A stretch of 64,000 bases of DNA from a virus. The stretch is from positions 1-64,000 of IMG/VR virus record IMGVR_UViG_3300037258_000368, one strand, 5' to 3'. Shown here piece by piece: positions 11,665-64,000 of the stretch (positions within the stretch are counted from its first letter, which is position 1; each line of letters starts with the position of its first letter). The translations under genes were made by a program, and so were the position numbers. The notes under the pieces are model-generated. The model searched no databases and was not told the DNA's origin. It saw nothing but the letters and a program-made list of their open reading frames with translations.

Positions 11665-11691
11665 CTTTAGGTGCTTTAGGTGCTTTAGGTG
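11665..11691. repeat. Three tandem 9-bp repeats at the capsid gene stop
   Basis: CTTTAGGTG occurs three times without gaps, at 11665, 11674 and 11683. The last unit contains the capsid gene stop codon. Period 9 keeps the reading frame, so slippage would not shift phase. A second triple 9-bp repeat with the same AGGT core lies at 18929-18955. Confidence 0.8.
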
Positions 11692-12728: not shown

Positions 12729-12791
12729 TTTCTGCCTCCATAAAGACCGCCGCTCGCACAAGCGAGGTGAGCGGCGTTGTTGTTTTCTGGA

Positions 12792-33825: not shown

Positions 33826-33892
33826 CTCATCCTGGTAGAGCGCCGGCCTTTGAAGCCGGAGGCACGAGGTTCGAGTCCTCGGCGGCCTGCCA
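33816..33892 (+). tRNA. tRNA-Gln (anticodon TTG)
   Basis: A full cloverleaf is visible: acceptor AGGCCGC/GCGGCCT, D stem GCTC/GAGC, anticodon stem CCGGC/GCCGG with loop CTTTGAA (anticodon TTG), T arm CGAGG/CCTCG with TTCGAGT loop, and encoded CCA. It begins inside the last codons of the HNH gene. Confidence 0.92.
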
Positions 33893-33894
33893 AA

Positions 33895-33968
33895 GCCGGG
33901 TTCGTTCAACGGTAGGATGCCGCGTTCTGAGCGCGGTGATCGAGGTTCGATTCCTCGCCCCGGTGCCA
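33895..33968 (+). tRNA. tRNA-Gln (anticodon CTG)
   Basis: A second cloverleaf follows after two bases. The anticodon stem is CCGCG/CGCGG with loop TTCTGAG (anticodon CTG), and the T arm CGAGG/CCTCG and CCA are encoded. The acceptor stem has a G-T pair and one mismatch at its base, so folding is a little weaker than for its neighbour. Both tRNAs would read glutamine codons. Confidence 0.85.
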
Positions 33969-45200: not shown

Positions 45201-48200
45201 TTGAATTTGGCGTTGTAGAGTGTGGCGAGATCAACCGCCCGGGCCGGATCGGCCATTGTCCAGTCGGTGAAGGCTTCCTTCAGCTTGGAGACAACCTCCT
45301 GCGCCGCCTCCGTGGCTTCCTGGTTGACGTAAGTTGTCGTCGGCGGCCCGGGGTCGCGGTCGCGAATGACCGCCGACTTGCCGTTGAGGGCGAGTTCCAG
45401 CAACTCATGGGCGCCGAGCCGTTCGGTGCTCCACTCGGCCTGGCGCGGCCCATATTTTCCGTCTTTGTCGACCAGCCATTGCCCGAGAATTTCGGAAAAT
45501 TGCAGGTTCGTGCGGCCCATGCCGATGTCGTCGAGGAAATTCAGAATGTGGCTGACCGGTATCCACGACATACCGAGGTTCATCGTGATCTCGCCCGGCG
45601 GCAATGGCGGCGGTTGCACCGCTTCGAGAGCCGACACATTGCGTTGTAGCCGCGGGTCGGCTTCGACCGCGGCACGGGCTTCCTCCAGTTTGGTGACAAC
45701 ATCGCCCGAGAGATAGGCATCGCGTATCACGTAGCTGTCCTGGGTGCCGGGCAGCCGCATGACCGCATCGCCTAATTCCTCGATAACCTGGGGGCGCGTC
45801 ACGCCGAGTTTCTTGGCGATGGCGTCGACATCGAGGCGACCGTGCTTATTCATCGACCACATCACGCCGTCATTGGCCGATTTCAGCTCCGGTTCGATGT
45901 AGCGGGTGAGGTTGTTCTCGAAAAAGATCCGGCGCTTCTCGGCAAGCCCAGTCTCCGCGTCGTAATCCTCGGCGGCGCTCAGGACGTAGCTCTGCTGATC
46001 CGCGCGCAGCGGGTCGAGGTTCGGCTGCTTGCGGGTCTCGATATCCGGCATGCCCGCCGGATCGAAGGTGCCCTCATCGAATTCGCGGCCGGCTTCTTTG
46101 GCGAGGCCGCGCGCTGTCTCGCGGGCACGAGCGATCTCATTCGCCTTCGATCCCATCGCGATCATGACGCCAGGATCGAAATCGCCCTCGTCAAAGTGCT
46201 CGCCGGCCGCGCGGGCTTCTTCGCGCGCCGCGGTGCGGGCGTTCTCCTGCTGTACGACATTGGGACGCCGGTATGTGAATTCGGTCTTATTGACCGGACC
46301 GTTCTTCGCAACAAAGGCGTCGTAGACCCGGCCCAACTGTGCGCGCGCAGCGGCGCCCGCCACCTCGTCGCCGGCAAGATTGGCGCGATAGACCTCGCGC
46401 ATCGCATCCCGCAAGGGGACGAAATCGCGGATCAGATGGATTTCGGCGGCCGTCTTGCCGCCCTCGACGCCGGCACCGCGCTCGGGAACCGGCCGGCCGG
46501 CGCCCTGCGAATACTGCATGAGCCGGCCGTCCGGTGCGACGTAATAGGAGCCGTCCACTTTTTCGGTCGATGAGAAATCGATCGCCGCCTTTTCTTCGGG
46601 ACTCAGCGGCGGGTCCATGACGCCCTCGGGCAACCGCGCCATTGCCTCGCGCAGCCGATCGGAAAGCACGGTGCCGGGTGTCTCGCCGACGGTGTATTCG
46701 TCTCTGCCAGAATTCATCTTGCCGGCGAAACTCTCGTTGCCGAGCACCATCTCGGGATGCTCGGTGAAGTAGCGGTTGACCGGCCCGGTAGCCGGTTCGC
46801 CGTTCTTGTCGGGGAGTTCGCGCAGCGCCGATTGGGTCCATTCGGGCAGCTCGTTGCCAAGATCGACCGGGGCGGCCCGCTTTTTGAAAAAGAGGATGTC
46901 GGTGGTGACCTCGGTGCCGGCATTGGCCTTGAAGGCGGTGTTCGGCAATCGCACGGCGCCGAGAAATTCCGCGCGCTCGGCAAGAAAGCGGCGTGCGTCG
47001 CCGTCCATCGAATCCATCGTGAAATGGCTCGTGATGAACGCGAGGAGGCCGCCAGGGCGCACGGAGTCGATCGATTTGGCGAAAAAGAAATTGTGGATCG
47101 AAAAGTTGCGGGCCGCATAGCGCGGATCGGCCTTGATCGCGATATTGCCGAAGGGCGGGTTGCCAATCGCCATGTCGAAATGGTCAAGCGGGACCTTGAC
47201 GCGCGAGAAATCGCCCTGCCGGACCCCGCTCTCGGGGTATAGCAATTTTGCGATCTGCGCAGTGATGGCGTCGCGTTCGATGCCCTGGTAGCGCGAGGCC
47301 GCGGCGAGGTCACCCGGCATCAGACCGAGAAAATTGCCGATACCCATGCCCGGCTCGAACACCGAGCCACCCTTGAAGCCAAGGCGTTCGACCGCCTGCC
47401 ACATCGAGCGGACAACCACCTCGGAAGTGTAGTGGGCGTTGAGGACGGAGGCGGCGGCGGCGCGATGCTCGTCGTCGGTGAGGATTTCTTTGAGCCGCGC
47501 ACCGATCTTGTCGAGGCCGCCGCGGAAATTTCCCTTGGCATCAGGGAGAGCACCGGAGAGGCCGCCCCAGCCGACATAGCGGGCAAGGATCGCCTGCTGT
47601 TCTTTCGTCGCGGGCAAACCTGCGGCGGTCAGCGATTTGGCGAGTTCGATCGCGGCGATATTGTCGTTTGCCTTGACCCGCGGCGAGCGCGCTTCGGCGA
47701 GCGCGCCGGGTTCTATGACGTAATTTGCGCCTTTGACATCGGCATCTGGCGCGCGCTCGCCGGGTTCCCCGTTCCGCTCCCCGGCAGGTCGTCCGGTGAC
47801 TCCAGGTGATCCGGGTCCGGCTTCCCCTCCGGCGGGAATGTTATCAGGGTGTCGAATACCAGCTCCCGCGCCCGCACCCTCTCCGCTGGATCCGGGTCCG
47901 GGTTCCCCTGCAGGATTTGGTTCAGCAGTTCCCGCGCCCGGCTGCTCACTTCCTTCAGGTGCTGTTGCCACTGGCCCGCGCGTTGCAGCGCCGCCACCAT
48001 CTTCGGTGCCCTCTCCATTGCCGCCTGTGCGTAGGGTTCCCGGATGTTGAGTAGCATTTGCCGCGTCCTCGATTGCCCGGTCGATTTCCTCGGGCGTGGA
48101 CATATTACGCGCTGGCTCGAAATCAGGATAGTGGCGCGCATTTTCGTAAAAGCCGCGGAGGTACGGTCGGATCGCCTCGCCGAAATCGGCAACCATCTCA

Positions 48201-51200
48201 TGCGCAAAATCGGCGAATTTATGTGCGCCCGCCTCGATATGATAGCCGGCGAGCGTCAATCCTGCTGCTGCGATTTCCGGGTCAAACCCGGCATTGAGTT
48301 GCGAGCCGCCGAGTTTGGCGCGCAGGATCGCACGCGCTTTATCGGCGGCATCCTTGGTGAAGATTTTATTGCTCTCGCCGTAGCCGGCTTTTTCAGAAGC
48401 GAGCGGTCCCGCATCGGCAATACGGCGGCGGGCTTCGGCGATTGCCCTTTCGATTGTTGCCTTCTCGCTCGGCCCAACTTCGCGTTCTCGCAGTTCCTGC
48501 TCTAACGTATTGATCCGATCCTGTTCGCGGCGCGCGATGTCCGCTGGTTCGGATGTTGGGATAGCGGCGAGGCCCGGGTGTTCTGGCGAAGCAAGCGCAA
48601 TCTCCCACTCGCCTTCCGTCAAATCGGTCAGACGCTGGATGCGGCTTAGATTTACCTGCGCCACGCCCTCCGGAATTGCGCCCTCTTTTACGAGGCGAGC
48701 GAGACCCGCAACAGCTTGCTGCGGCGTGACCTCTCCATTCAGGGCGTCGACCGCCCACTTGTTCGCTGATCTTTTCCCCGGATCTTCGAAATCCGCATAC
48801 TCGTAGCGCGGTGTGACGCCTTCGGGCGCGATCTTGTATTCGGGATGCGCGTCGCGATCGATGCTCAGTTTCACCCCGTCGCGCGTCGGGGTCATGCCGA
48901 CCGGCTCGGTCGTGCGCACGCCATTTTCCACGGTCGAGCGCACGCCGCGCTCGTCTTCGTAAAGGGTCTGGCCGAGAGAATTTTTGCCGATCTCTTTCGG
49001 CTCAGGCCGCGGAGCCCGTACCGCGGCTCCCGTGACGAATGACGGCAGCACGTATTTCGTGCCGGCGGGCGGTTCCATGACCTGCGGTGTCGGCGCTTTT
49101 GGCTTGGGCGGCGCCTTCGCCTTCCCTTCTGCTTCGCCTTCCGGGGGTTCCGGCGGCGCCGGCGGTGGCGGTGGCTTCGCTGCCTCGGCTTCGGGCTCGG
49201 GCGGCCCATAGATTTCGGCGGTCGCCTCGCGCAACTCCTCGGGCGGCACGCCGGCGACAAAGCCGTCGCGGCGCATCTCGGCTTGCTTCGCCGCGATCTC
49301 GGCCGGCGTCGGCGCTCGACCGTCCGGTGTCGGGAAGAACGCCTCGGTATCGACGGGTCGGCCATCGGCCAATTCCGCGACGCTGGCGCTGATCGCGGCG
49401 TGCTGGGTCTGCGCGTCGGCGTGGACGATCGGCGCGGCGGCAGCGGCTTTTCGTATCTCGTCCTCGAAGGTTATGCCGAGCCGTTCTTGTGCGGCTATGA
49501 AGGCGGCCTCGTTTTCTGGATTGTGGAAAAACGGAATTTGCCCGCCGATCGATTCCACACCGCTTTGTCGGGCGTATTCCTCGAAAAACTCTTCCTCGGT
49601 GACGCCCCGCGTCGGGATGCCCCGCTTTTCGCCGATCTCCTGCGCTTCTGCGTCGGGCTGCCACATGCGGGTTGTGGTCGACTCGGCTGCCGGCGAGCGC
49701 CGGATCGCCATCTCTGTCGAGACCTTTTCGGAGTGGCCTTGGGCGAGCAGGTAGGCTTTGACCTGTTCCTGCTCCGGGGTCAGCGGTACGGTCTCGGCGG
49801 CCGGGAGGGGGGGTCCACCCGCAGTCATGCTTGCCCGCCACTCCGCGGCTTGCCGCTCGAAATCCGCGACATCGTTGGACTCGATGACGGTGCGCTGGCC
49901 GTTGATCTCGATGGTCGTGCGGAAGGATCTCGCCGGCGGGGCTGGTTCCGGTGCGGGCGGCGTGGTGGCCGGCGCTCCTTGGCGAGCATTCTTCCAAGCG
50001 TTGAATTCCGTCATATTGTCCATCGACGGAATACCGAGCGCTATCCTGGCCTCACGCACGAATTGAGCTGCGGCCTGTCGTTCCGAGTCGCCATTGGCAC
50101 GCGCAACTGCCCGCACTTGATCGAGCCGGGGACCAAGTGCCTCCGCAATTTGGCTAGCGGTTTTGCCTTCGGCAGCAAGTCCTTCAATGTTGCCAACGAT
50201 ATTGAGCCGGGTTGCTGTTGCATAAGAGCGCGCAACGTTCTCACGAACGAGATCGGCAACGGGGCCTGTGCCCGCCGGGATCACAGGCTGGCGGACCGCA
50301 GCAACGATGGGCGGCGGGGCGCCAGACGGGGGAGGAGGCGGCGCTCCTCCTGGCGGCGCTCCTCCTGGCGGCGCTCCTCCTCCTGGCGGCGCTGGCGGCG
50401 GCGCCGGCGCCCGCGCGACGTGCCAAAGATCCTTGATCGGTCCGGTGATCCCGGCATGGGTGAGCGCGGCCAGGCCGGCGCCCATCGCAGTGTCGAGGAG
50501 CGCCTCGCGCAAACCGTAGTCGCTGGCTTCCTCTTGGCCGAGGCCGTACTGCAGCGCGGCGACCGGCGCCATCGCCAGCGCGCCGCTTGCCGCACCGGCG
50601 CCCAGCCGCGCGACGGTGCGTCCGATGATCCCGGCCCCGGTCCGGGCCATGATCGCCTCTTCGCCGATGCCCGGCACAAAGATCGTGGCGGCCCGCAGCG
50701 GGTCGAGCATGAAGCCGAGCGAGCCGACGGCAAAATTGGTCGGCCAGGAATGAGCGTTTTCGAAGCGAGCGGTCACGTTGTCGCGTTCGATTTCCTCGCG
50801 CTTTGCTTCACCGATCAGCTTGGCGACCGCCTCGGGCAGCGGACCATCGCCAAGCGAGACCGGTTTGCCGTCATTGCCGAGTGGGGCGTAACGCTGCTGG
50901 TATTCCTCGTGCGGTAGCATCGGTGTCGGCTCGGAGCCGGGCGGCGGCATCTGGTCCGTGGTGCCAAAGGGCGCCGCGGCTTCCTCCTGCTCTCGGGTCA
51001 TGCCGTAGAGCATCTGCGGAAGGATGCCGCTGCCCCGGTAGAGGCCTTGTGTCGCGACGCGGCCTGCCGAACGCAGGGTCGAACCGACCTGCTCGCCGAT
51101 CGACTCGCCGGCGGTCGAGGGGATGTCCTGGTAGGCGATATCCGCGGCCGCTTCGGGATCTTCGACCGGTTTCCCGTCCGGGATGATATCGAAACCGCTC

Positions 51201-51202
51201 AT
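42266..51202 (-). CDS. Giant polyvalent virion protein with N6-methylase and SNF2-like helicase domains
   Basis: The 2978-residue protein has three visible parts. The N-terminal 1000 residues include Pro-rich linkers and polyvalent-type helical segments. A methylase follows: FEPGMGIGNF (SAM-binding motif I, about residue 1284) and NPPFG (about 1346), as in N6-adenine methylases. A helicase follows: Walker A AVGAGKTS (about 2047), DEAHQ (about 2221) and motif VI QRNGRGFRQG (about 2574). Similar giant proteins occur in Bcep22-type phages and DarB-like antirestriction proteins; it probably enters with the DNA and blocks restriction. Confidence 0.88.
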   Translation of the reverse strand: MSGFDIIPDGKPVEDPEAAADIAYQDIPSTAGESIGEQVGSTLRSAGRVATQGLYRGSGILPQMLYGMTREQEEAAAPFGTTDQMPPPGSEPTPMLPHEEYQQRYAPLGNDGKPVSLGDGPLPEAVAKLIGEAKREEIERDNVTARFENAHSWPTNFAVGSLGFMLDPLRAATIFVPGIGEEAIMARTGAGIIGRTVARLGAGAASGALAMAPVAALQYGLGQEEASDYGLREALLDTAMGAGLAALTHAGITGPIKDLWHVARAPAPPPAPPGGGAPPGGAPPGGAPPPPPSGAPPPIVAAVRQPVIPAGTGPVADLVRENVARSYATATRLNIVGNIEGLAAEGKTASQIAEALGPRLDQVRAVARANGDSERQAAAQFVREARIALGIPSMDNMTEFNAWKNARQGAPATTPPAPEPAPPARSFRTTIEINGQRTVIESNDVADFERQAAEWRASMTAGGPPLPAAETVPLTPEQEQVKAYLLAQGHSEKVSTEMAIRRSPAAESTTTRMWQPDAEAQEIGEKRGIPTRGVTEEEFFEEYARQSGVESIGGQIPFFHNPENEAAFIAAQERLGITFEDEIRKAAAAAPIVHADAQTQHAAISASVAELADGRPVDTEAFFPTPDGRAPTPAEIAAKQAEMRRDGFVAGVPPEELREATAEIYGPPEPEAEAAKPPPPPAPPEPPEGEAEGKAKAPPKPKAPTPQVMEPPAGTKYVLPSFVTGAAVRAPRPEPKEIGKNSLGQTLYEDERGVRSTVENGVRTTEPVGMTPTRDGVKLSIDRDAHPEYKIAPEGVTPRYEYADFEDPGKRSANKWAVDALNGEVTPQQAVAGLARLVKEGAIPEGVAQVNLSRIQRLTDLTEGEWEIALASPEHPGLAAIPTSEPADIARREQDRINTLEQELREREVGPSEKATIERAIAEARRRIADAGPLASEKAGYGESNKIFTKDAADKARAILRAKLGGSQLNAGFDPEIAAAGLTLAGYHIEAGAHKFADFAHEMVADFGEAIRPYLRGFYENARHYPDFEPARNMSTPEEIDRAIEDAANATQHPGTLRTGGNGEGTEDGGGAATRGPVATAPEGSEQPGAGTAEPNPAGEPGPGSSGEGAGAGAGIRHPDNIPAGGEAGPGSPGVTGRPAGERNGEPGERAPDADVKGANYVIEPGALAEARSPRVKANDNIAAIELAKSLTAAGLPATKEQQAILARYVGWGGLSGALPDAKGNFRGGLDKIGARLKEILTDDEHRAAAASVLNAHYTSEVVVRSMWQAVERLGFKGGSVFEPGMGIGNFLGLMPGDLAAASRYQGIERDAITAQIAKLLYPESGVRQGDFSRVKVPLDHFDMAIGNPPFGNIAIKADPRYAARNFSIHNFFFAKSIDSVRPGGLLAFITSHFTMDSMDGDARRFLAERAEFLGAVRLPNTAFKANAGTEVTTDILFFKKRAAPVDLGNELPEWTQSALRELPDKNGEPATGPVNRYFTEHPEMVLGNESFAGKMNSGRDEYTVGETPGTVLSDRLREAMARLPEGVMDPPLSPEEKAAIDFSSTEKVDGSYYVAPDGRLMQYSQGAGRPVPERGAGVEGGKTAAEIHLIRDFVPLRDAMREVYRANLAGDEVAGAAARAQLGRVYDAFVAKNGPVNKTEFTYRRPNVVQQENARTAAREEARAAGEHFDEGDFDPGVMIAMGSKANEIARARETARGLAKEAGREFDEGTFDPAGMPDIETRKQPNLDPLRADQQSYVLSAAEDYDAETGLAEKRRIFFENNLTRYIEPELKSANDGVMWSMNKHGRLDVDAIAKKLGVTRPQVIEELGDAVMRLPGTQDSYVIRDAYLSGDVVTKLEEARAAVEADPRLQRNVSALEAVQPPPLPPGEITMNLGMSWIPVSHILNFLDDIGMGRTNLQFSEILGQWLVDKDGKYGPRQAEWSTERLGAHELLELALNGKSAVIRDRDPGPPTTTYVNQEATEAAQEVVSKLKEAFTDWTMADPARAVDLATLYNAKFNRVVLRQWDGGYLTTPGVSSNWSWRPHQTRVVARIIQDGNTYMAHAVGAGKTSAMIGSAMEMRRLGLVAKPMFVVPNHMLGQFAKEFYEQYPTARIMVADTSNFHTSVRKQFVANIAQQDLDGVVITNSAFGLIPISGEFSAQMIREATDEIDEAFAQLGQNPDELKKVTKGVNPDDRFTVKRLQAQKQRLEQKLLAARARQDEVNTFEELGVDFLFVDEAHQFRKLPITTITPMKGIDSSGGSDMAWDLYTKSRYLDQQNPGRSLVMASGTPVTNTMGELYSISRYIQPKALAERGLQHFDAWKQAFGTTTTKLEPTVTNEYKNATRFDTFVNMPELYKMVGSAMDVVTSKDLAQYVTRPAYNRLPPWLAPLTNWLQDFRADITRRAEAIKTRKGPPGKGDDILFSILSDGRKAAIDPRLVDMHAATAGDPSKLNMMIANVHRIWDETRDTQFYDPATDFKNESFRGPATQLVFANSGIGTRNSKGEPVFSSYQWMRREWIRMGIPASEIAFIKDFENPVAKLRLFNDVNEGKVRLLVGSVQKMGTGVNVQRRLRAIHNLDPLWYPADDEQRNGRGFRQGNHNPTLDIHDYSTMGSLDEFMWNLMAKKAGFIEQFFRGDPNLREMEDLGEADTYSQLAAMTTSDPRVMQLAQFKQDLKKLERRQSAHRSEQYRYQIDSQRGATEAAKEHATAAALQEAIGRSHQITGENFKVTVGDQVLTTREEAVAAIDKAVAATYPGLDVGKTQQIGEIGGFPLLISAQNHYALDAEGHFVKGPTGLLVTLKDDAPHFYLQFWPGEDRPLGMVPAPNMIASASSLLRLLPDYLKGAQERARNAELRAESSNREIGKTFVDEAKIPPMRQQVAALEASLSGKQAPVAEDAPPGPQAAAAAPAAAGGTAPLAPGQTTSIGPEGTMVSRDPALLRLWGQEPDLTAALQRLDTIGDQLLPEEQAAIDAAKARTGDAVDEAAACIGESEV

Positions 51203-54200
51203 CAAAATTGCCCCTGCTGATAGTCAACCGGGGCGTCTGGCACCTTGTCGGGCTTCGCGTTGAACGGCACTTCGATGAATCCGCCGTTGGCCTGTCGCAC
51301 GAAACGGCCGCCGCTGTCCATGAGGCGGATCGATTGACCGACCGTGATCCAGTTCGGCGCCGCCTTGAGGATGCGCAGCCAATCGTCGCCGCTCACGGCC
51401 CCGGCGATGTCGGGCCGGTTAGCCAGGGAGAGTGGCTGCTGAACATCGTTGAGCGTCAGAGAATTGACGTATTGCTGGGCTGCGGCGCTGATCGCATCGA
51501 CGTTGGAGCGCGGCACGCGGGCGCCGCCGTTCGGCATGAATTCCCATTTGCCGATCGCGCTCTCGACCGCATGATCGGCCGCCGCCGCCGGATCTTCGCC
51601 GTGGTAGAGCGCCTTCGCTTTCGCAAGGAGGCCGATCGCGGAGATGATGCCATCGACCTGGCGCGGCGACGCGCCGGAATTGAGCATCGAGCGCTCGTAT
51701 TGTTTGATGCTGTCGTCGCCGGCGATGCGCGTCGCGATCGTCATCGAGGGCTTTAGGGCGCCGGCGACTTTGGCGTCGAGCAGATCGTCGAGGGACTTGT
51801 TGACGCCGGCCTTGTTGGCTTCCGCCAAACCACGCGCGAGGAGCGCGCCGTCGCCCTCGTTGTCGAGCGCGCCGACCATCTGGTAGGCCGGCGGCAGTTT
51901 GCCGACGCTGACGATATCCCGCCAGACTTCCGGCCATGCTGTACCCCAGCGCTCTTGCATCGCTTTCAATGCCGCTGGTGCGTGTTCAGGGTCGGCCATG
52001 ATCTGCTGCGTCGCTGACTGGGCCTGTGTGTTGCTCAGAACGTGGCGGCTGTCGGCGGGCACCTGAAGCCGCTCCTGTTCGCCAAGAAGCTTTGCGGCAA
52101 AGCTCTCGACGGCATCGGGGATGCCCTGACCGCGCAATTCGGCTGACTGCTCGAGCGTTTCTTTCGCCGTCGCCTCGCGCGCCGCCTCGACATCGGGGTT
52201 GGTCGCCAGGACGTAGGAGGCCGGATCTTCGCCCAGGGCTTTGATGTGCTGTTCGACGGCTTTGTCAAAAGCGTCGGCGAGCTTTTTCTGCTTCACGTAG
52301 CCCGGGCCGGCGCTGCGGGCGAGCACCGCTTGGTTGGCGGCGTGCTGCGTCGCGATTTCAGTCAGCGGCATGCCGCGCACCGCCTGCACCTGTTGACCGA
52401 TCGTTCGGGCGTCTTCAAGATCGCCGATCATCTGATCGGCGTTTTCCTTCGGGAACAACCGGCGATAGGTGTTCGGGTCGTAATTGAACTCGCGGCCGTC
52501 TTGCAGCATCGCGACGCCGCCCTTGTATTGCGCCAGCGCCTGTGAGCGATCGGCCGAAGTCGTCTGCACCATGCGGCCGTAGCGTTGATTGGCCATGCCG
52601 TAGACGCGGCTGTATTGCTCTTCCGACAGCCCTTCGGGGATGCGGGCGAGATATTCCTCGCGGGTCGGGAAATTGGGCACCGGCGCCGTCATCGGGGTCG
52701 CCGGCGCTGCCGGCTGGCCGACAAGCTGATCGGGCGGTGGCGCTGCCTTCGGGTTGCCGTGGGCGTCGTACATCGACGCCTGCGCGTTGTGGAGCAGTGT
52801 CGCATAGGCATCGGCCGCGGCCGGCGTCGAAAACGTGCCGAGGTTCTCACCGGTCGCCTTGAAATGCGCTATCGCGTCCTCGTTGCTCAATCGGCCCGCC
52901 GGGTGACCCATCACGGTCGGAATCAGCACCTCGCCGGCGCCCGTGCCGATCGACATCGAACTCGTAGTGCTGTAGCTGCCATCTGGGTTATGCAGAACCG
53001 CCCGGTTCCAGGGATCGACATTCCCCGGTTTCACCATTCCGGCGGCATGCTGGGTGTCGAAAACCGGCGGGTTGACTTTTCCCGCTGCCGGTGCTGGCGC
53101 GGCGGTTGTCAGCGCGCGGATCTTCTCGCCCATCGAACTGTAGCCGTGTGGGCTCGGGTGCACGCCCTCGGTCGCGCCGACATCCTCAGCCGCAATTACC
53201 GGGACGCCCTGCCGCTTGGCGATATCAGCGAGCTCCGCGTTCTTCTCGGGGAATTTGGGGCCGTATCCGACCGCGATCACATTGGCGCCGTGCGCCTTCA
53301 GGTAATCGATCGTCTGCTCAACGACCGGCATCTGCTGACCGTTCGAGCCGGACGGCAGCACCACGGTCTTGCCCTGCCAATGATCCTCGGGCTGGCCCTT
53401 GATCGTGTCGAAGATGGTCTGCGGCGTGTCGCCGCCGTGGACATGCCCCGGCGCGCGCAGCGGTACATTGAGCCCGACGCCGAGGCTGTCGCCCCAGACT
53501 TCGAGATTTTGTGCACCGCCTTGGGCGCCCGGTGCAACATTCGGGGCTCCTGGCGCAACGCCCCGGTCCAACGCGTCGGCAAGCTGCGGAACGCCAGCGC
53601 GCGTGTAGGAGGCATCCTTGTGTGGGTCGCCACCAAGGTATCCGCGCAATGCGGCATTCCAGGTGCCCCCTGTCGCCTTCAGATCGGCGAGATAGCGCGC
53701 CGCCTGCGGGATTGCCTGTGTCGGATCGTCTGGGTCGAAGCCGCCGCGACTGGCGGCAGTCGAGGGCAGAAATTGGGCTATCCCCCGCGCGCCTTTCGGC
53801 GAGACCCCGGTCGGCTTAAAGCCGTTCTCGGCAAAAAGCACCCGCGTCAGCAATTCCTCGGGCACGTCGTATTGGGTCGCTGCACCGTTGATGAGCGGGG
53901 CATATTGCGCCGGCGCCTGCGGGAGCGCCGGAAGCGGGCCGGTTGTCGTGCGGGGACCCGTCGTGCCCGGAACCGCGCCGCCGGACATGCGATCGACGAT
54001 CGCGGCCGCCTGCGCGCGATCGGCGTTGCGCTGCGCGGTAGCTGCGTGGCCGGCGAGACTGTACCCGAGCGAATCGTAATTCTTCGAGGTCGACAGGATG
54101 TCGGTGTGGTCGGTGTAGAGCTTCGTCGCAAGCGCCGGATTGCTGATCGCGGCCGCCTTAATGCGGGCCTCGGTGACATCGGTCAACGCCTGGCGCTGCT

Positions 54201-56892: not shown

Positions 56893-57023
56893 TCCCCGCC
56901 ATGCGCGACGGCGTCCTCGCCGGCATCGTCCTCGTGTTCGCGGTATCCGCTCGGCTCGCTGTAGTCGCGCAGCTCGGGCTCATCGGCCGCGCTGCGCGAT
57001 TGCCGCCATTTCCTGATCGGTAA
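56889..57023 (+). CDS. 44-residue membrane peptide
   Basis: It starts MIPAMRDGVLAGIVLVFAVS and has one membrane helix followed by a basic, proline-ending tail. The start overlaps the MazG-like stop (ATGA). Its last 44 bases overlap the convergent nozzle gene end. It may be a real small gene; evidence is modest. Confidence 0.45.
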   Translation: MIPAMRDGVLAGIVLVFAVSARLAVVAQLGLIGRAARLPPFPDR

Positions 57024-60000
57024 GACTGGGGGCACGCGACCGGGCAGCCGGAGCGCCGGAGCCGCCGCCGTCGGGCCGCGCCCCGCCGCCGCCGCCGCGC
57101 GCCTGTTGCGCGTATTCCAATTCCGGAATATCGCCGGGCAACATCTCGGGGACCAGCGCCAGCACGTTTAGCGGCAGCGGATTTACCTGCTGAATCGCGA
57201 TCTGTCCGTTGGTCTGCCAATTTGCCGGAAGGGTCACACGCTCGTCGCCGGTAAAGAGCGGCACCACCGTACCGCCTCCGGGCGTCGTGTAGGGCGTACC
57301 CTTGTCTTTCACCGTAGCGAGGGCCGGCCATGGGACGGCGAACGGCGTCGGCGTCAGGGTTGAGGCGTCGACCTGGTTCGCTCCGGCCTGCAACCGGCAA
57401 CTCGCTTCGATCCGCGCGGTGACTGCGGTGATCGCCTTACGGCGCCCCTGGATCGTCGGTTGGCCGGTATCGGCATAGACGCTCTGCAGCTGCGCGGTGA
57501 AGCCGAGCCCGACGGTAACCTGCGAAGCTGGAAAGGGAAGCGGTATTGTCCCATCGGCCGCCGCGATCTGCGCAGGGATCACGATTCCGTCGGCAAGCCC
57601 GGTGATGATTTTTCCTGCGAGGTGCGGCGCCTTGACGGTCGTCACCATAGGGGCGATCGACCACTTCCCGGGCAATTGCACGATCGGCGCGTTGCTCGGA
57701 TCGTTCGGATAGGTCTGCTGGCAGGGGTAGAACCAAGTTCCGGTAACCTGTGTGGGCGAATTATAGCTGGTGACCTGTGCGATGCCGCCGCCCAGCCGGA
57801 TGACTTGGCCGACCGCGGCTGCGCTAAAGATTCCTGGAAAGCTCGTGAAGATCGCGCCGGCCCCGCTCGCCTTGTCGGCCGAAAGCGATGCGTTGGGCGT
57901 CGCGAGCGGCAGCGTCAGACCGCAATCGACCGCCCATACCTCTTCGGTCGCCTGCCAGAGGCGGTTATCCATTCGCTCGATGAAATACCGCGTGCCGCCA
58001 GCTGCAACCGGGCGCTCGACGACCAGATAGAGCGCATCGACCGGCAATTCGGTGACGCTGCACAGCGAGCGCACGAGGCCTTGCGTGTCATGCCGCGCCC
58101 AGCCCCCGACCTCCTGTTCTTTTAGATAGGTGAGGCTGAGGAGAACGCCGTCGTCGCGCGCGGACCAGAGGATGCGATAGGGTTCTTCCGCCCAAGCCCA
58201 CTCGGCGATCCCGTGCCCGATCAGCAGATGCGAGGATTGCCAGGAGGCGTCGGTCCCGGTGTAGATGTTGAAAAACAGCTGGTAGGAAAGATCGCGGACC
58301 GTGAAGCCGTGCGATTGCAGATAGAGGATGTCCCAGTTGATCTTGATCGGCGGGACCGTTGAAGAGGAACCGATCGAGGATTGCGGCGCGGCGATCTGGT
58401 TGGCCGGGGTGATCGCCTGCGGCGAGGAGGCGAACGAGCCGGGCGCACCGATCTGCCAAACCCCGGCACCATTGAAGGTGACGAGGCCCAACGGCATCTG
58501 CACCATCCATTGGATGCCGTTGACTTGTTCTGACCAGGGCGTCGCGGTGATCGCATCGGCGTCGCCAACCGGGATCGAACTGTCCATGTTGGTAAAGGCG
58601 CCCGGCTGCGACGCCCAATAGGTGTCCGGGTTGTTGTCCGAATCGGCGTAGAACCGGCGCTCTTGGAAATAGGAGACGACACCCGGGTTGACGCCCGTCA
58701 GCGGTCCGACGTTGAGCGTCCCGGACGCGCTGGAACCGTCCCCGGTGAAGACGAGTGTATCGCCGGATCGGTAATCTATGCCCGCATCGAGCACGATAAC
58801 GTCGGCGATCCCGCCGGTCGGCGTCGGACTGATGACGCATTCACCGATAAAGCCGCTGCCTGTCGCACTGACGATCGAGGGGGTCGCGACCGACCAATCG
58901 TTGCTGCTCGCGCCCATTGTGACGCCGACAATTTGTCCCGGCGCAAAGGGGTTCTTGTGGGTCGGCGGCGAAATCGCGAGATCGGTCGTGATATTGGTGT
59001 CGATGAACTGGTTGCCGAAACTTGATCCGACAAAGCCGAAGAACGCGCCGACCGGCACCGGCAATGCGTTCGAGGTGTTCCCCGGCAGCGTGTTATAGGA
59101 GGCCGGCGCACGGTAGATGTTGTAGTAGCCCGCGCCGGCGACGGCCGACCAGGACACGATTTCCGAGCCGGCGGTGACGCCCATATCCACCGAATCGGTG
59201 ACGTTGGCGATCGGTGAGGCGATCGATTCTTCCCCGGTCTTCGGGTCGACCGCGGTGACGACATAGGCGTAGGCGCAGGGCAGGGTCGGCGGGGTCGATC
59301 CGGTGGAGGGATGGACCGTCGCATTGACGCTCGTGCTCCCCGGCGCCGCGATCATCGCACCGAAGCTGGTGGGACCGATCGTCCAAGCCGTCGGCCCGAG
59401 CCGCTTCAAATCCTGCGGCGGATAATCGGGGTGCGTCAGCGAGATAACATCGGCCGATTCTGCGAATTTGAGGAGCGCCAGGTCGACCGCTGCGTAGGGC
59501 GTTGCGATCGTATAGATCCTCGATGCCGTCCCGCCGCCCGTGTAGGCGCCAAAGAGGCTGGCATCGATGTCGTTGCCGTCGAGATCCTGAAGGGTGAAAT
59601 CGTCGAGGGTGGCGCCGGCGACGATATAGGTGTTGCCGTTTAGCTCGGTCGTTCCCCTTATCGCGGCAAGCGCGACCCAATCGCCATTCGCGAAGGTATT
59701 GGGGGCGGTGACGACGCAGGGATCGGTAGGGCTGATCCCGGTGATCACGACGGGGCTCTCGACGACCTGGCCCCCGTTGCTGATAAAGCGCAGATAGTGG
59801 TCGCCGAATTCGAGAACGATCGTCTGCGATTGCGAGAATTCGAATGAGATGAGGCGTGGCTTGGTCTCACCGAAGAGCGGGTTCTGCCGCGAGCGTCCGA
59901 CATAAGCCGTTCCGGCGCGCGAGTAGGCGCCGCCGCGGAACCCGACATAGAGGTTCCGCATTGTGGCTGCGGCGGTATGGAATTTGGCGACGTCGACTCG

Positions 60001-60063
60001 ACCATAAAGCGCCGGCGCAATCTCTCCCCATGTAAAGGCGGGTTCTAGGAACGGGGCTGACAT
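56980..60063 (-). CDS. Tail nozzle (T7 gp12-like tubular protein B)
   Basis: The 1027-residue protein starts MSAPFLEPAFTWGEIAPALY. It has the pattern of podovirus tail nozzle proteins: GRVDVAKFHTAAATMRNLYV, PRLISFEFSQSQTIVLEFGD, many beta strands, EERRFYAD-like tail sequences near residue 465 and a C-terminal beta domain. It is much longer than T7 gp12 and includes extra beta domains (SGTASRIYTIATPYA). It would form the end of the short tail. It ends with a Gly/Arg-rich tail. Neighbouring adaptor genes support the call. Confidence 0.85.
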   Translation of the reverse strand: MSAPFLEPAFTWGEIAPALYGRVDVAKFHTAAATMRNLYVGFRGGAYSRAGTAYVGRSRQNPLFGETKPRLISFEFSQSQTIVLEFGDHYLRFISNGGQVVESPVVITGISPTDPCVVTAPNTFANGDWVALAAIRGTTELNGNTYIVAGATLDDFTLQDLDGNDIDASLFGAYTGGGTASRIYTIATPYAAVDLALLKFAESADVISLTHPDYPPQDLKRLGPTAWTIGPTSFGAMIAAPGSTSVNATVHPSTGSTPPTLPCAYAYVVTAVDPKTGEESIASPIANVTDSVDMGVTAGSEIVSWSAVAGAGYYNIYRAPASYNTLPGNTSNALPVPVGAFFGFVGSSFGNQFIDTNITTDLAISPPTHKNPFAPGQIVGVTMGASSNDWSVATPSIVSATGSGFIGECVISPTPTGGIADVIVLDAGIDYRSGDTLVFTGDGSSASGTLNVGPLTGVNPGVVSYFQERRFYADSDNNPDTYWASQPGAFTNMDSSIPVGDADAITATPWSEQVNGIQWMVQMPLGLVTFNGAGVWQIGAPGSFASSPQAITPANQIAAPQSSIGSSSTVPPIKINWDILYLQSHGFTVRDLSYQLFFNIYTGTDASWQSSHLLIGHGIAEWAWAEEPYRILWSARDDGVLLSLTYLKEQEVGGWARHDTQGLVRSLCSVTELPVDALYLVVERPVAAGGTRYFIERMDNRLWQATEEVWAVDCGLTLPLATPNASLSADKASGAGAIFTSFPGIFSAAAVGQVIRLGGGIAQVTSYNSPTQVTGTWFYPCQQTYPNDPSNAPIVQLPGKWSIAPMVTTVKAPHLAGKIITGLADGIVIPAQIAAADGTIPLPFPASQVTVGLGFTAQLQSVYADTGQPTIQGRRKAITAVTARIEASCRLQAGANQVDASTLTPTPFAVPWPALATVKDKGTPYTTPGGGTVVPLFTGDERVTLPANWQTNGQIAIQQVNPLPLNVLALVPEMLPGDIPELEYAQQARGGGGGARPDGGGSGAPAARSRAPSLTDQEMAAIAQRGR

Positions 60064-60092
60064 CTGATCGTGCCGGCTGCTATTCTGGCGTC

Positions 60093-60257
60093 ATGAGCGA
60101 ATTCACCTGCGTTGTGTGTCGCAAGACGTTTACCGAGGGCTGGTCAGAGGAAGAAGCCATGGCCGAGTTGGCCAAGAACTTCCCCGACGTTCCTCTTTCG
60201 GAATGCGAGATCCTGTGCGAGGATTGCTATAGGGCGATGGGATTTGGCGATGCGTAG
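60093..60257 (+). CDS. Small zinc-binding phage protein
   Basis: The 54-residue protein starts MSEFTCVVCRKTFTEGWSEE with a CVVC pair, and ends with CEILCEDCYRAMGF. The pattern fits a small family of phage zinc-binding proteins with FTC..C...F..GWS. It is divergent from the nozzle gene. Role unknown; proteins of this group may be host-interaction factors. Confidence 0.75.
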   Translation: MSEFTCVVCRKTFTEGWSEEEAMAELAKNFPDVPLSECEILCEDCYRAMGFGDA

Positions 60258-60349
60258 AGACCTTCTCGATGGCCTCAATTCAGAGCAGCGTATCCGGCAT
60301 GAACGCGCGTCCATGTCTGCTGCGCCGCGCGACGTGCAGGGGAGAGAAA

Positions 60350-60601
60350 ATGAAGGCGCCGAGAGATGGGATCTATTACGGAACCCGCAAAGTGTCAGAC
60401 GGATTTAACGGGGCAATCTTCTGCTACGAAAACGGCCGCCGAACGCGGAGATATTCGGTTTACCCCAGTTTCCCCACGGCAGCGGAAGCAGCGGACGTGG
60501 CCAAGTTCGAGGCAGAATACATAGCGATGGAAGGCCAAAGGGTGGCGCCGATGAATCAAAAGACTGAGCCATCGGCCCAGCCCGACGCCTCCCAGCCGTA
60601 G
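60350..60601 (+). CDS. Small hypothetical protein on opposite strand
   Basis: The 83-residue protein starts MKAPRDGIYYGTRKVSDGFN, with a strong GGGGAG site before the ATG. The sequence IFCYENGRRTRRYSVYPSFP suggests a small beta-rich domain, then a helical part (AAEAADVAKFEAEYIAMEGQ). It overlaps the end of the adaptor gene on the other strand. An in-frame ATG exists upstream but the ribosome site supports this start. The gap before it (60258-60349) has no convincing gene. Confidence 0.6.
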   Translation: MKAPRDGIYYGTRKVSDGFNGAIFCYENGRRTRRYSVYPSFPTAAEAADVAKFEAEYIAMEGQRVAPMNQKTEPSAQPDASQP

Positions 60602-61437
60602 CGCAATACGCCGGGGCCTTCGGCGCCGCCCCAACCGAGCCCATAGCCGGGCGAGCGCGCCCTGATCCAATCGGCGACATGATCGATCGACTGCGGGAAC
60701 CCCGCCTCGTTGGCGTTTTTCAGCCGGGCGAGCGCGATGGCCCCTTGAGCAATCGAGATTTGCTGGGCGCGGTAGGAAAGAACCGCCTTCGGATCGGAAA
60801 TCGCAACGGGCGCGAGTTTTGTGCCCAAGGCGTTGATGAACGCCTCGGCGAACATCGGGTCCCATTGCTCGATTTCGGCGACGAGCTTGGTATAGACCAG
60901 ATGCGCGTTGGTGACGTTCGTGAGAACGATGCGGCGGGCGGTCAGGCCGACGCCTTCGGTCCCGGAGAAATCCGGCAGGCTGTCCCAATCGATCTCGCCG
61001 CTCATCAGCGGGAAATCTTCGCTGGTCGCCACGAGGAACCGCGCCGGCACTGAGCGCTGCCCGGGCCAACTCGTTTGCATATTGGTCATGATCGGCGGCG
61101 TCGGGGGCGAACCGACGAGCTGCTGCGGGAGCCAGCGCGCCGCGATGCCGTCGATCGGCCATGCATAGGCAAAGCACCAGGGCGGCTCGACCGCCTTCGA
61201 GATCGGCAACCCGGTTGCAGCGTCAAGCGTGTTGCCGGTGGCATCGGCGAGGAGTTGCAGAGGGGCGATTTTGCGGGCGAAGTTCCAATGTGCTGCACGT
61301 AGTATCTGACGCAGGACAGGCCCGTATTGGCGCCGCGCCGCTTCGCTGATCCGGCTTCCGTCGTAGATGTCCCCGATCGGCGGTTCGCCGAAGGCGTCGA
61401 GCGATCGGTTGACCATATCGGCCGCGATCTGGAACAT
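60556..61437 (-). CDS. Tail adaptor-like protein, copy 1 (T7 gp11 type)
   Basis: The 293-residue protein starts MFQIAADMVNRSLDAFGEPP. It belongs to the tail adaptor type that links portal and nozzle, with conserved blocks: IYDGSRISEAARRQYGPVLR, AHWNFARKIAPLQL, FAYAWPID, RIVLTNVTNAHLVYT and WDPMFAEAFINALGTKLAP. It is the longest of three tandem paralogues. The start overlaps the Acb2-like gene stop (TGATG). Confidence 0.8.
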   Translation of the reverse strand: MFQIAADMVNRSLDAFGEPPIGDIYDGSRISEAARRQYGPVLRQILRAAHWNFARKIAPLQLLADATGNTLDAATGLPISKAVEPPWCFAYAWPIDGIAARWLPQQLVGSPPTPPIMTNMQTSWPGQRSVPARFLVATSEDFPLMSGEIDWDSLPDFSGTEGVGLTARRIVLTNVTNAHLVYTKLVAEIEQWDPMFAEAFINALGTKLAPVAISDPKAVLSYRAQQISIAQGAIALARLKNANEAGFPQSIDHVADWIRARSPGYGLGWGGAEGPGVLRYGWEASGWADGSVF

Positions 61438-61697
61438 CAGGAAGTGAGTTCCTTGACGTTCCACATGACGGCCTCTTCCAGCGCCGTGACGGATAGCGCT
61501 CTGTAGCGGCCGGGCTTGACCTGCTCGAAAAGGGCAAGGAGTTCCTCGGCCTTCTGCTTGATCGCGTCGTGCAGCGCTTTTTCCTCGGGCGTCATCGCTC
61601 GATAGCGCGGGCGAAACCGGCTGACAGCGATATCGCCGCCCTGCCGGTCATCGGGCTTGCCATCGAAGACATTTTCGGTTCGGCGGTCGTCGGCCAT
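61437..61697 (-). CDS. Candidate Acb2/Tad1-type anti-CBASS protein
   Basis: The 86-residue protein starts MADDRRTENVFDGKPDDRQG. The C-terminal half is a helical hairpin with the pattern YRAMTPEEKALHDAIKQKAE, then LLALFEQVKPGRYRALSVTA and LEEAVMWNVKEL. This matches my recollection of the Acb2/Tad1 hairpin domain, which sequesters cyclic nucleotide signals of CBASS and some Thoeris systems. A good AAAGGA site precedes the ATG. It sits inside the tail operon, coupled to tail adaptor copy 1. Binding needs testing. Confidence 0.6.
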   Translation of the reverse strand: MADDRRTENVFDGKPDDRQGGDIAVSRFRPRYRAMTPEEKALHDAIKQKAEELLALFEQVKPGRYRALSVTALEEAVMWNVKELTS

Positions 61698-61711
61698 CGG
61701 AATTTCCTTTC

Positions 61712-62353
61712 TCAGCCTCTGTGTCTTTCAGCAATCGCGGCGGCCTGTGCCGAATCCTGGGACAGCATCCTTTGCTGATCCGGGTTGGCGAGCTGCGGCG
61801 ACGCGGCGAGTTTTTCCCCCAGCCGGTCGACCAGCACGGTGACAAAACCCGGCTCCCACAACGCGGGGTTTGTCACCCGGCGCCGGTAGACCGCGACAGC
61901 CCCCGTCTGATTGGTGAGGATGACGCGTTGCGGCGGCCCGGCGGCCACAGGCGGATTGCCGCCGACAGTGGGCAACAGGTCGTTGCTGATGCGCTTGGGC
62001 ATCGGCGTCGGCAGGAGCACCGGCAGCGCGGATGGCGGCGGCACGATCGCGAGCAATTCGACGCAATCGACGGGGTAAGCATATTCGTAGAGGTAGCCAG
62101 GGGGCGGAAAGAGCGTCGTCCAGGGGCTCAGCGGCGTATAGCCGCCTGGTGGCGGCGGCCCCTTCAAGAGCGTGAGCGGCACGCTGCCAAGAGCGAAGGG
62201 CCATTCGCCGCTGCGCAGCACCTCGTCGCGCGTCTGCCCGTAGATTTCGAGGGCAGCGCGCGCTGCAGCCGAACCTTCGTAGATCGAAGCGATCATGCGG
62301 CTGAAGCCGATGCCACGCAGCGCCTGATTGACGATTTCCTCGATGGCCGTCAC
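61712..62353 (-). CDS. Tail adaptor-like protein, copy 2
   Basis: The 213-residue protein uses a GTG start overlapping the previous stop as GTGA. Shared blocks with copies 1 and 3 include EEIVNQALRGIGF, IYEGSAAARAALEIY, AYPVDCVELLA and RVILTNQTGAVAVYRRRV followed by WEPGFVTVLVDRLGEKLA. A proline-rich insertion occurs in the middle. It is probably one of three proteins in the connector ring region or a specialised variant. Confidence 0.75.
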   Translation of the reverse strand: MTAIEEIVNQALRGIGFSRMIASIYEGSAAARAALEIYGQTRDEVLRSGEWPFALGSVPLTLLKGPPPPGGYTPLSPWTTLFPPPGYLYEYAYPVDCVELLAIVPPPSALPVLLPTPMPKRISNDLLPTVGGNPPVAAGPPQRVILTNQTGAVAVYRRRVTNPALWEPGFVTVLVDRLGEKLAASPQLANPDQQRMLSQDSAQAAAIAERHRG

Positions 62354-62940
62354 ATCAGATCCTCATTCGACATAGCGAGCTGGGCGTATTTCTCGCTCTC
62401 GGCGAGGAGTTCGCGAGCGAAGTCCGGGCGCCCGGCGAGTGCCATCGCGAGTGGGCTGGATAGCCGGCGCGACATGGCCTCGGAAAATCCCGGGTCCCAC
62501 AAGTTCTCGATGATCGAATTCGCGGTGTAGGCGAGGAGCGCGTTCTGCTGGTCCGTGAGGATGACGCGCTTTGTTATTCCCGCTCTCGGGTCGAAGGGCG
62601 CCATGCCGCGCACCGGCTGCGGGTCGAAGGGATCGGCGAGCGCCCCGGCACCGGTCGCCGGCGGTCCTATCTGGCGCGCTCGCACGCAATCGGCGGGATA
62701 GACGTATTCGTATTGCCAGGGGACGATCGGCGCACCGGCGACAGGCGTCAGTGGCGCAGCGACGATCCAGGCAAATTCGGGGTCGATCTCGCGCAGCAAA
62801 AGGTCACGGCAGATTGGATAGAGCACCCCGGCTGCGAGGCCAGCCGGCGTCCCGTCGAAATTGGGCAATGTGCCGGTGACCTGCTCCTGATTGACGCTTA
62901 ACTCGAGCGCTCGGTTTACAATATCGGCGGCTGTCGTCAT
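62350..62940 (-). CDS. Tail adaptor-like protein, copy 3
   Basis: The 196-residue protein starts MTTAADIVNRALELSVNQEQ. It shares with the other two copies the start pattern IVN.AL, the YEYVYPADCVRARQ block, RVILTDQQNALLAYT and the WDPGFSEAMSRRLSSPLAMA end. It is the first of the tail adaptor genes to be transcribed. The divergent plus-strand gene at 62974 leaves only 33 bases for promoters. Confidence 0.75.
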   Translation of the reverse strand: MTTAADIVNRALELSVNQEQVTGTLPNFDGTPAGLAAGVLYPICRDLLLREIDPEFAWIVAAPLTPVAGAPIVPWQYEYVYPADCVRARQIGPPATGAGALADPFDPQPVRGMAPFDPRAGITKRVILTDQQNALLAYTANSIIENLWDPGFSEAMSRRLSSPLAMALAGRPDFARELLAESEKYAQLAMSNEDLM

Positions 62941-62973
62941 AAACGGACGCGCCTTTCAGAGAGGAATTAAGGA

Positions 62974-63564
62974 ATGAAATTCAGATTTTTGGCGACGGCG
63001 ATCGCGCTATCGCTATCGACCTGTCTTCTGTCACCGGTTCCGGCACAGACCTTGAGATTGCCGACAGGAGGCGAGGATACGATCGAGCCTCCGCAGGCTA
63101 AAAACGTCCTGACGTTTCAGCAGATCGAGGATCTTACATCTGCGCTACGGGCCGTGGACGCCGGGAGCGCTGATCAATGCACCGAGGCGCCGAAGCCAGC
63201 GACGTCCCCGCCAGCGGCATTGGCAACGCCGCCGCCGCGATCCTGTCCTTTCCACAAATCGCCGTCGCTGCTGCGCGCGATGGCGCAAGACATGGTGGCG
63301 CTGCAGCCGCTCGATGCCGAGTTCAAGATCCGGCAGAATGCTGTCCGCCTCGAAGTGCTCGACGAATCGAAGCTGACCACCGCTCAACAAGATGCCAAAT
63401 TTCTGGCGAAGATGGCACCGATTACCGCCGAAAAGCGGACGCTCCCGCTGCTGGCGCGGATCAAGATGGCCGAACTAAACCTCGGCGATCCGCCGGATCA
63501 CAACCGCATCCCTGCGATGTGGATCGCGGCGCTGTCACCGATCATCGACGATCTGACGCCCTAA
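62974..63564 (+). CDS. Exported hypothetical protein (cargo gene)
   Basis: The 196-residue protein starts MKFRFLATAIALSLSTCLLS and continues PVPAQT, a clear Sec signal peptide. The mature part is helical (FQQIEDLTSALRAVDAG, LLRAMAQDMVALQPLDAEFK), with one proline-rich stretch and CPFHK. It is divergent from tail adaptor copy 3 and overlaps the convergent gene at the right end. It might modify the periplasm of the infected cell. Function unknown. Confidence 0.7.
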   Translation: MKFRFLATAIALSLSTCLLSPVPAQTLRLPTGGEDTIEPPQAKNVLTFQQIEDLTSALRAVDAGSADQCTEAPKPATSPPAALATPPPRSCPFHKSPSLLRAMAQDMVALQPLDAEFKIRQNAVRLEVLDESKLTTAQQDAKFLAKMAPITAEKRTLPLLARIKMAELNLGDPPDHNRIPAMWIAALSPIIDDLTP

Positions 63565-63727
63565 GATTCGGCGCGGATGTTGGCGGCGCCGGCGGCGGCG
63601 GCGGTGGTTTATAGGCCGGCGGGATTGGTCGCTGGTGCGATGCCGCCGCCGGCGGTGTGGGCGGGAGCTGCGCCGCCTCGGCAGACAGCCCGGCGAATAG
63701 CAGGAGGAAGATCAGGATCAGGGGCAT
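63542..63727 (-). CDS. Small secreted proline-rich protein
   Basis: The 61-residue product starts MPLILIFLLLFAGLSAEAAQ, a signal peptide, followed by a proline-rich tail (IPPAYKPPPPPPAPP). Its start overlaps the end of the fibre gene fragment by ten bases. It overlaps the convergent gene's end by 23 bases. Function unknown. Confidence 0.6.
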   Translation of the reverse strand: MPLILIFLLLFAGLSAEAAQLPPTPPAAASHQRPIPPAYKPPPPPPAPPTSAPNLRASDRR

Positions 63728-64000
63728 AGGGTCACCACACCGGCGTTGCTGTACCAATCGCCGGTCACTGCCCCGGCGCAATCTGTCGGGATGGTCAGCC
63801 GCAGATGGCCAGGCTCCAGCGACACCATAAGGGTGCCCCCGACCGTCGTCTGCAACTGGCCGGTAACGATCTGCATGTAGTTGTTGCCGTCCCATTTGAT
63901 CGCCGAGCCGAGCGCCGTCGTGTTGAGGACGATCGCGGCGTCGGTTATCGTGGCGCTGGCGAGGTTGAGGCCATCGGCCCAGCTGCCGACAGCGCCGAAG
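63718..64000 (-). CDS. 3' end of tail fibre-like gene (5' end outside window)
   Basis: The frame is open from the right edge to a TGA at 63718 and gives 93 residues: GSWADGLNLASATITDAAIV, then IKWDGNNYMQIVTGQLQ and MVSLEPGHLRLTIP. The style matches fibre shafts and C-termini. It is on the same strand as the fibre gene that leaves at the left edge, so the two could be one gene on a circular map. Confidence 0.65.
   Translation of the reverse strand, partial: FGAVGSWADGLNLASATITDAAIVLNTTALGSAIKWDGNNYMQIVTGQLQTTVGGTLMVSLEPGHLRLTIPTDCAGAVTGDWYSNAGVVTLCP

What the first reader, a model, noticed from the sequence alone, without database searches (positions are those of the whole stretch)
61437..61697. 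Acb2/Tad1-like anti-CBASS candidate inside the tail operon
The C-terminal hairpin of this 86-residue protein (MTPEEKALHDAIKQKAEEL, then PGRYRALSVTALEEAVMW) has the spacing and key residues I associate with the Acb2/Tad1 hairpin domain. Known members sequester cyclic oligonucleotide signals and blunt CBASS or Thoeris immunity. Here it is translated with tail adaptor genes, so it would be made late unless there is a separate promoter. Late timing would be unusual for an anti-defence protein that must act before signalling. The assignment is from pattern memory.
Basis: partly seen in the sequence, partly recalled or inferred. Interest (0 to 1): 0.78.

Follow-up and report, generated by a model that had tools for sequence, protein, structure and literature searches.

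The report
Acb2-type nucleotide sponge in tail operon
A small phage gene sitting between tail genes belongs to the known Acb2 family of proteins that soak up bacterial alarm nucleotides; the match is sound, and its position among late virion genes turns out to be common for this family, so it is a good but fairly ordinary find.

Summary
A profile of 68 relatives hits solved PaP2 Acb2 (E=6e-6) and T4 Vs.4 (E=4e-4). AlphaFold2 gives a confident helical hairpin, and the best Foldseek matches are Acb2, Vs.4 or Tad1 (E-values weak because the protein is short). The ligand residues shared by PaP2 Acb2 and T4 Vs.4 (Y, K, T, basic K/R) are kept and near-invariant. It lacks Tad1's N-terminal beta domain, so it is Acb2-type, with a shorter hairpin and a conserved N-terminal extension of unknown role. 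The gene is translationally coupled to a tail gene, under purifying selection, and absent from the same site in eight related phages: an accessory insertion. The worry about late timing is weakened: JBD67 carries its homologue between major head protein and head-tail adaptor, and most classifiable relatives sit beside packaging or structural genes. Published triggers of CBASS and Thoeris are themselves late products (terminase RNA, prohead protease, major head protein). Ligand and target system are untested. New member of a known kind.

The parts
61437..61697 (-). acb2-like gene, 86 aa: Acb2/Tad1 hairpin domain at residues 32-82, helices 37-57 and 64-85
   Evidence: PF24729 E=1.2e-14; AF2 pLDDT 95-98 over the hairpin; PDB profile hits PaP2 Acb2 E=6e-6, T4 Vs.4 E=4e-4
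61605..61697 (-). N-terminal extension, residues 1-31, with conserved D16-x-R18; mostly without regular structure in the model, role unknown
   Evidence: D16 and R18 kept in 51 of 68 relatives; absent from short relatives such as L050
61705..61710 (-). ribosome-binding-like AAAGGA, 7 nt before the acb2 start
   Evidence: sequence
61435..61439 (-). TGATG: acb2 stop overlaps the ATG of the next tail gene (translational coupling)
   Evidence: sequence; the downstream start agrees with homologue starts in L137, L141, L142
60556..61437 (-). T3: tail protein, phrog_394 (T7 tail-tube-A-like), third tandem copy
   Evidence: phrog_394 E=1.3e-19
61712..62353 (-). T2: tail protein, phrog_394, second tandem copy, immediately upstream of acb2
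   Evidence: phrog_394 E=4.4e-26
62350..62940 (-). T1: tail protein, phrog_394, first tandem copy
   Evidence: phrog_394 E=3e-25
56980..60063 (-). large tail protein (T7 tail-tube-B-like), downstream in the same direction
   Evidence: phrog_376 E=9e-145

Best explanation
The gene encodes an Acb2-type cyclic-oligonucleotide sponge. Inferred mechanism, by homology with PaP2 Acb2 and T4 Vs.4: protomers assemble through the helical hairpin into a hexamer. Pockets between protomers, built around Y32, K47, T71 and K82, bind cyclic dinucleotides; the hexamer ends, probably involving R64, may bind cyclic trinucleotides. This keeps CBASS effectors (and any other system using such signals) from being activated. 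The gene is an accessory insertion between two tail genes, apparently co-transcribed and translationally coupled with them, so the protein would be made when late products that are known triggers of CBASS or Thoeris appear. Shown here: family, fold, conserved pocket residues, purifying selection, operon coupling in the sequence, empty sites in relatives. Inferred: hexamer, ligand, timing, target system.
For: Pfam PF24729 54.6 bits vs cut-off 27. Known Acb2 (PaP2), a T4-type Vs.4 and the JBD67 protein hit the same model. Profile of 68 relatives vs PDB: PaP2 Acb2 6e-6 over the whole hairpin, Vs.4 4e-4, Acb2 homolog 43 2e-3, Tad1 3e-3; hhalign 95-96% to PaP2 Acb2 and Vs.4. AF2 hairpin, pLDDT 95-98; Foldseek top hits are Tad1, Vs.4 and Acb2 in PDB, and mostly named Acb2/Tad1 hairpin proteins in BFVD with probability up to 1.00. 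Ligand residues Y8, K23, R79 and T68 of Vs.4 (PMC10097602; T68 from PMC12657230) map to Y32, K47, K82 and T71, kept in 67, 68, 68 (K or R) and 67 of 68 relatives; all four lie outside the recruiting motif. R64 is kept in 68 of 68. pN much below pS. In eight related phages the T2 and T3 homologues follow each other with no gene between.
Against: No binding, hexamer or infection data. Pairwise BLAST to PaP2 Acb2 finds nothing, so the link rests on profiles. T4 residues H11 and F82 (the base-stacking Phe) are M35 and T85 here, although PaP2 Acb2 also lacks both (L14, A88). The hairpin is 21-24 residues shorter than in PaP2 and T4. Foldseek PDB E-values are above 1, as expected for so short a hairpin. 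The host, and whether it carries CBASS, are unknown; only 10 of 99 sampled genomes of the family of a related prophage's host have a SMODS cyclase over cut-off.
Confidence: 0.83

Rival explanations
1. A sponge of the same fold whose main target is not CBASS but another nucleotide signal (Thoeris gcADPR, type III CRISPR cyclic oligoadenylate, or an unknown signal of alphaproteobacteria).
For: Tad1 shares the hairpin family and binds gcADPR (PMC12043709). This clade differs from PaP2 and T4 in hairpin length and in an added conserved N-terminal segment. SMODS cyclases are sparse in the one host family sampled.
Against: The Tad1 gcADPR pocket uses loops of its N-terminal domain (PMC12043709), which is absent here. 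The dinucleotide pocket residues are kept.
Confidence: 0.2
2. A small virion-assembly factor (connector or tail accessory protein) that merely shares a helical hairpin with Acb2.
For: It sits in the tail operon, coupled to a tail gene; relatives sit beside head-tail adaptors and terminases.
Against: Eight relatives of the tail genes lack it at the same place, and nine related contigs searched lack the family (several are fragments). The neighbours are unrelated from locus to locus: terminase, capsid, tail, lysis, recombination, integrase. The conserved residues are the ligand residues.
Confidence: 0.07
3. A degraded or inactive homologue kept only by chance.
For: A few known phages carry loss-of-function acb2 alleles, which may be selected by Panoptes (PMC12657218; PMC12657230).
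Against: Open frame, ribosome site, coupling, key residues present, pN much below pS.
Confidence: 0.03

Closest known systems
Acb2 of Pseudomonas phages PaP2/PaMx33 (PDB 8h2j, 8ixz; p26)
   Same: Same Pfam family; stand-alone hairpin protein of similar size; Y11, K26, R67, T74, R85 correspond to Y32, K47, R64, T71, K82.
   Different: Hairpin tip about 24 residues longer there; no long N-terminal extension; gene lies beside DNA replication genes, opposite the virion genes.
Vs.4 (Acb2) of phage T4 (PDB 7uq2)
   Same: Same family; Y8, K23, T68, R79 and hexamer-interface L29, F33, A73 have matching or similar residues here (PMC10097602).
   Different: Base-stacking F82 is T85 here, H11 is M35, A77 is N80; hairpin tip about 21 residues longer; gene in a cluster of small accessory genes.
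Acb2 homologue of Pseudomonas phage JBD67 and other Beetrevirus (gp34)
   Same: Same Pfam family (59.6 bits) and the same kind of place: inside the head-tail morphogenesis operon.
   Different: Between major head protein and head-tail adaptor rather than between tail-tube-A-like genes; long-hairpin type.
Tad1 (Clostridium botulinum prophage, PDB 7uav, 8smd, 8kbf)
   Same: C-terminal hairpin of the same Pfam family; first PDB row by Foldseek.
   Different: Tad1 has an N-terminal four-stranded beta domain whose loops help form its gcADPR pocket (PMC12043709); no strands are predicted here.
PHROG 1454 / PHROG 717
   Same: Matches at 3.1e-8 and 1.3e-3; PHROG 717 is the group in which Vs.4 homologues were collected (PMC10097602).
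   Different: Both are still labelled unknown function in PHROGs v4.

Membership tests
Acb2 (anti-CBASS 2 sponge) | Sequence match to the Acb2/Tad1 hairpin family above curated cut-off | tested here: met
   PF24729 54.6 bits vs 27, E=1.2e-14
Acb2 (anti-CBASS 2 sponge) | Stand-alone two-helix hairpin preceded by a short N-terminal segment, no beta domain | tested here: met
   AF2 helices 37-57 and 64-85, no strands
Acb2 (anti-CBASS 2 sponge) | Cyclic-dinucleotide pocket residues (PaP2 Y11, K26; T4 Y8, K23, T68, R79) | tested here: met
   Y32, K47, T71, K82 present and near-invariant in 68 relatives; T4-only H11 and F82 not kept, nor in PaP2
Acb2 (anti-CBASS 2 sponge) | Hexameric assembly | not testable with these tools
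   Only single chains can be folded; T4 interface positions L29, F33, A66, A73 are L53, F57, S69, A76 here, but A77 is N80
Acb2 (anti-CBASS 2 sponge) | Binds and sequesters cyclic di- and trinucleotides | not testable with these tools
   needs ITC or mobility-shift assay
Acb2 (anti-CBASS 2 sponge) | Restores phage growth against CBASS | not testable with these tools
   needs plaque assays
Tad1 (Thoeris anti-defence 1) | C-terminal helical hairpin of the shared Pfam family | tested here: met
   (Tad1 E=3e-3)
Tad1 (Thoeris anti-defence 1) | N-terminal four-stranded antiparallel beta-sheet domain contributing to the gcADPR pocket | tested here: not met
   86 aa in all, no strands predicted, residues 1-31 mostly without regular structure

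The most novel reading that the evidence does not exclude
A clade of short-hairpin Acb2 sponges, with its nearest genomic relatives in alphaproteobacteria and marked by a conserved N-terminal D-x-R segment, has been inserted repeatedly into late virion operons so that the sponge is produced together with the very late products that trigger nucleotide-signalling defences. The N-terminal segment would give a changed ligand range or an added binding partner.
Probability: 0.2. Interest if true: 0.5.

Novelty: new member of a known kind. Interest (0 to 1): 0.32.

Why it matters
It adds a well-supported Acb2-type sponge from a podovirus-like phage with tandem tail-tube-A-like genes, in a family whose members are often still annotated as hypothetical proteins. 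It shows that late virion-operon placement is a recurring arrangement. That makes a testable point: if defence systems are triggered by late products (terminase RNA, prohead protease, major head protein), a late-made sponge is timed to the signal, not too late for it.

Tried and rejected
Tad1 membership: rejected, no beta domain. Single-sequence search of PDB: no relatives; pairwise BLAST to PaP2 Acb2: nothing; profiles were needed. NCBIfam: no match near cut-off. A separate promoter for acb2: the sigma-70 scan found none on the minus strand of 60000-64000, which is weak evidence because phage or host promoters may differ. Apparent 28-nt overlaps with downstream genes in many relatives: artefact of the conserved Met-Trp codons ATGTGG, which offer a GTG in the +2 frame; not used. 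Invariance of residues 72-79 is partly circular, because relatives were recruited with that motif; not used as evidence. Search for relatives of T3 in viral contigs: none found. 'Relatives' genome search: not available for a virus record. The Acb2 discovery papers (Huiting 2023, Cao 2024) are not held in the library; facts from them are taken second-hand from reviews or marked as own knowledge.

Full report
Observation. The ORF at 61437-61697 is on the minus strand, 86 codons, and reads MADDRRTENVFDGKPDDRQGGDIAVSRFRPRYRAMTPEEKALHDAIKQKAEELLALFEQVKPGRYRALSVTALEEAVMWNVKELTS. It follows the tail gene 61712-62353 by 14 nt with AAAGGA as ribosome site, and its TGA overlaps the ATG of the next tail gene (TGATG), whose likely start is therefore 61437 rather than the GTG listed at 61464. 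The three flanking phrog_394 genes and the phrog_376 gene downstream are tail genes, followed by internal virion proteins. The window is part of a 66,286-base virus record. Terminase, portal-type connector and major head protein lie on the same strand at 19444-20862, 16315-18156 and 11685-12761.

Family. The protein matches PF24729 Acb2_Tad1_hairpin with 54.6 bits against a cut-off of 27. PaP2 Acb2, a T4-type Vs.4 and the JBD67 protein match the same model. A profile of 68 relatives finds PaP2 Acb2 (6e-6), T4 Vs.4 (4e-4), 'Acb2 homolog 43' (2e-3) and Tad1 (3e-3) as the best matches in the PDB. Profile-to-sequence comparison gives 95-96% probability with PaP2 Acb2 and Vs.4. Pairwise BLAST fails, so divergence is large.

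Fold. AlphaFold2 on 68 sequences gives mean pLDDT 86, with 95-98 over the hairpin: helices 37-57 and 64-85, and residues 1-31 mostly without regular structure. In the PDB the first nine Foldseek rows are all Tad1, Vs.4 or Acb2, though no E-value is below 1. In the viral library the named proteins among the top 18 rows are all Acb2/Tad1 hairpin proteins, with probability 0.97-1.00. Tad1's N-terminal beta domain (PMC12043709) is absent, so this is Acb2-type.

Pocket. In Vs.4, Y8, H11, K23, R79 and F82 contact cGAMP, and L29, A66, A73, A77 and F33 hold the hexamer (PMC10097602). T68M lowers binding (PMC12657230). The alignment maps Y8, K23, T68 and R79 to Y32, K47, T71 and K82. In 68 relatives these are Y in 67, K in 68, T in 67 and K or R in 68. 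The two T4 residues not kept (H11, F82) are also not kept in PaP2 Acb2 (L14, A88). R64, aligned with PaP2 R67, is invariant; that R67 serves the trinucleotide site is own recollection, not tested. Interface positions are L53, F57, S69, A76 and N80. Columns 72-79 were part of the recruiting motif and are not used as evidence.

What differs. This clade has the hairpin tip shorter by 21-24 residues than PaP2 and T4, and an N-terminal extension with D-x-R in 51 of 68 relatives. The solved 'Acb2 homolog 43' (9ptq, six chains) aligns with no large insertion at the hairpin tip, so a compact hairpin is not unique. The role of the N-terminal extension is unknown.

Selection and accessory nature. Against 16 relatives pN is 0.16-0.24 and pS 0.45-0.89. 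Relatives of the T2 tail gene show T2 and T3 homologues following each other within a few nt (73 nt in one) with no gene between, in eight loci. Nine such contigs have no PF24729 match (several are fragments). The gene is therefore most simply read as an insertion into a tandem of tail genes, kept coupled. In one more distant phage (L029) a relative sits directly upstream of a tail-tube-A-like gene that is 35% identical to T2.

Late placement. PaP2 acb2 lies beside DNA polymerase, primase and MazG genes, opposite the virion genes. But the homologue of JBD67 lies between the major head protein and the head-tail adaptor, that of Sinorhizobium phage Aussie between head-tail adaptor and stopper, that of Bernal13 just before the terminase small subunit, and that of prophi91-3 between lysin B and holin. 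For 40 related viral loci, one large same-strand neighbour each was scanned: 19 are packaging or structural, 5 DNA metabolism or integration, 1 other, 15 unclassified. This has no background control, and large phage genes are often structural, so it shows that late placement is common, not that it is enriched. That JBD67 Acb2 is functional is own knowledge of the Huiting 2023 paper, which is not held.

Mechanism. Sponges act by concentration (PMC12043709). Known triggers include an RNA from the terminase genes for one CBASS cyclase (PMC10686824), and the prohead protease for another and the major head protein for Thoeris (PMC11312562). A sponge made with the virion genes would be present when such signals start. 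This timing is inferred from gene order; no transcripts were seen.

Host. Unknown. The closest relatives in bacterial genomes are in Phenylobacterium, Caulobacteraceae, Rhodospirillaceae and Siccirubricoccus records. In the family of the first, 10 of 99 genomes have a SMODS cyclase over cut-off.

Verdict. The finding is real and the family assignment holds. Function is assigned by homology with conserved ligand residues; novelty is modest.

Noticed in passing
window 60556-62940 (minus): Three tandem, diverged copies of a tail-tube-A-like gene (phrog_394); related contigs also show tandems, with four in L139 (2812-5481), whereas L029, L145 and L146 show one.
   Followed up: partly
window 42266-51205 (minus): A 2979-residue protein matching DarB-like antirestriction, DNA methyltransferase, helicase and endolysin families, among virion genes: possibly a co-injected polyvalent antirestriction protein.
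   Followed up: no
window 62974-63564 (plus): A 196-residue ORF with a signal-peptide-like start, divergent from the first tail gene with only 33 nt between, so the tail cluster may have its own promoter there.
   Followed up: no
window 60093-60601 (plus): Two small opposite-strand ORFs fill the gap between the third tail-tube-A-like gene and the large tail gene.
   Followed up: no
window 33816-33968 (plus): Two adjacent tRNA-Gln genes (anticodons TTG and CTG).
   Followed up: no
L088 4905-5180 (prophage prophi91-3 of Mycobacterium abscessus): An Acb2-family gene annotated as hypothetical lies between lysin B and holin (PF24729 79.5 bits).
   Followed up: partly
L133 4001-4288 and related Beetrevirus records: The Acb2 homologue is annotated as 'NAD/FAD-utilizing enzyme' in several Pseudomonas phage records, most likely a misannotation.
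   Followed up: partly
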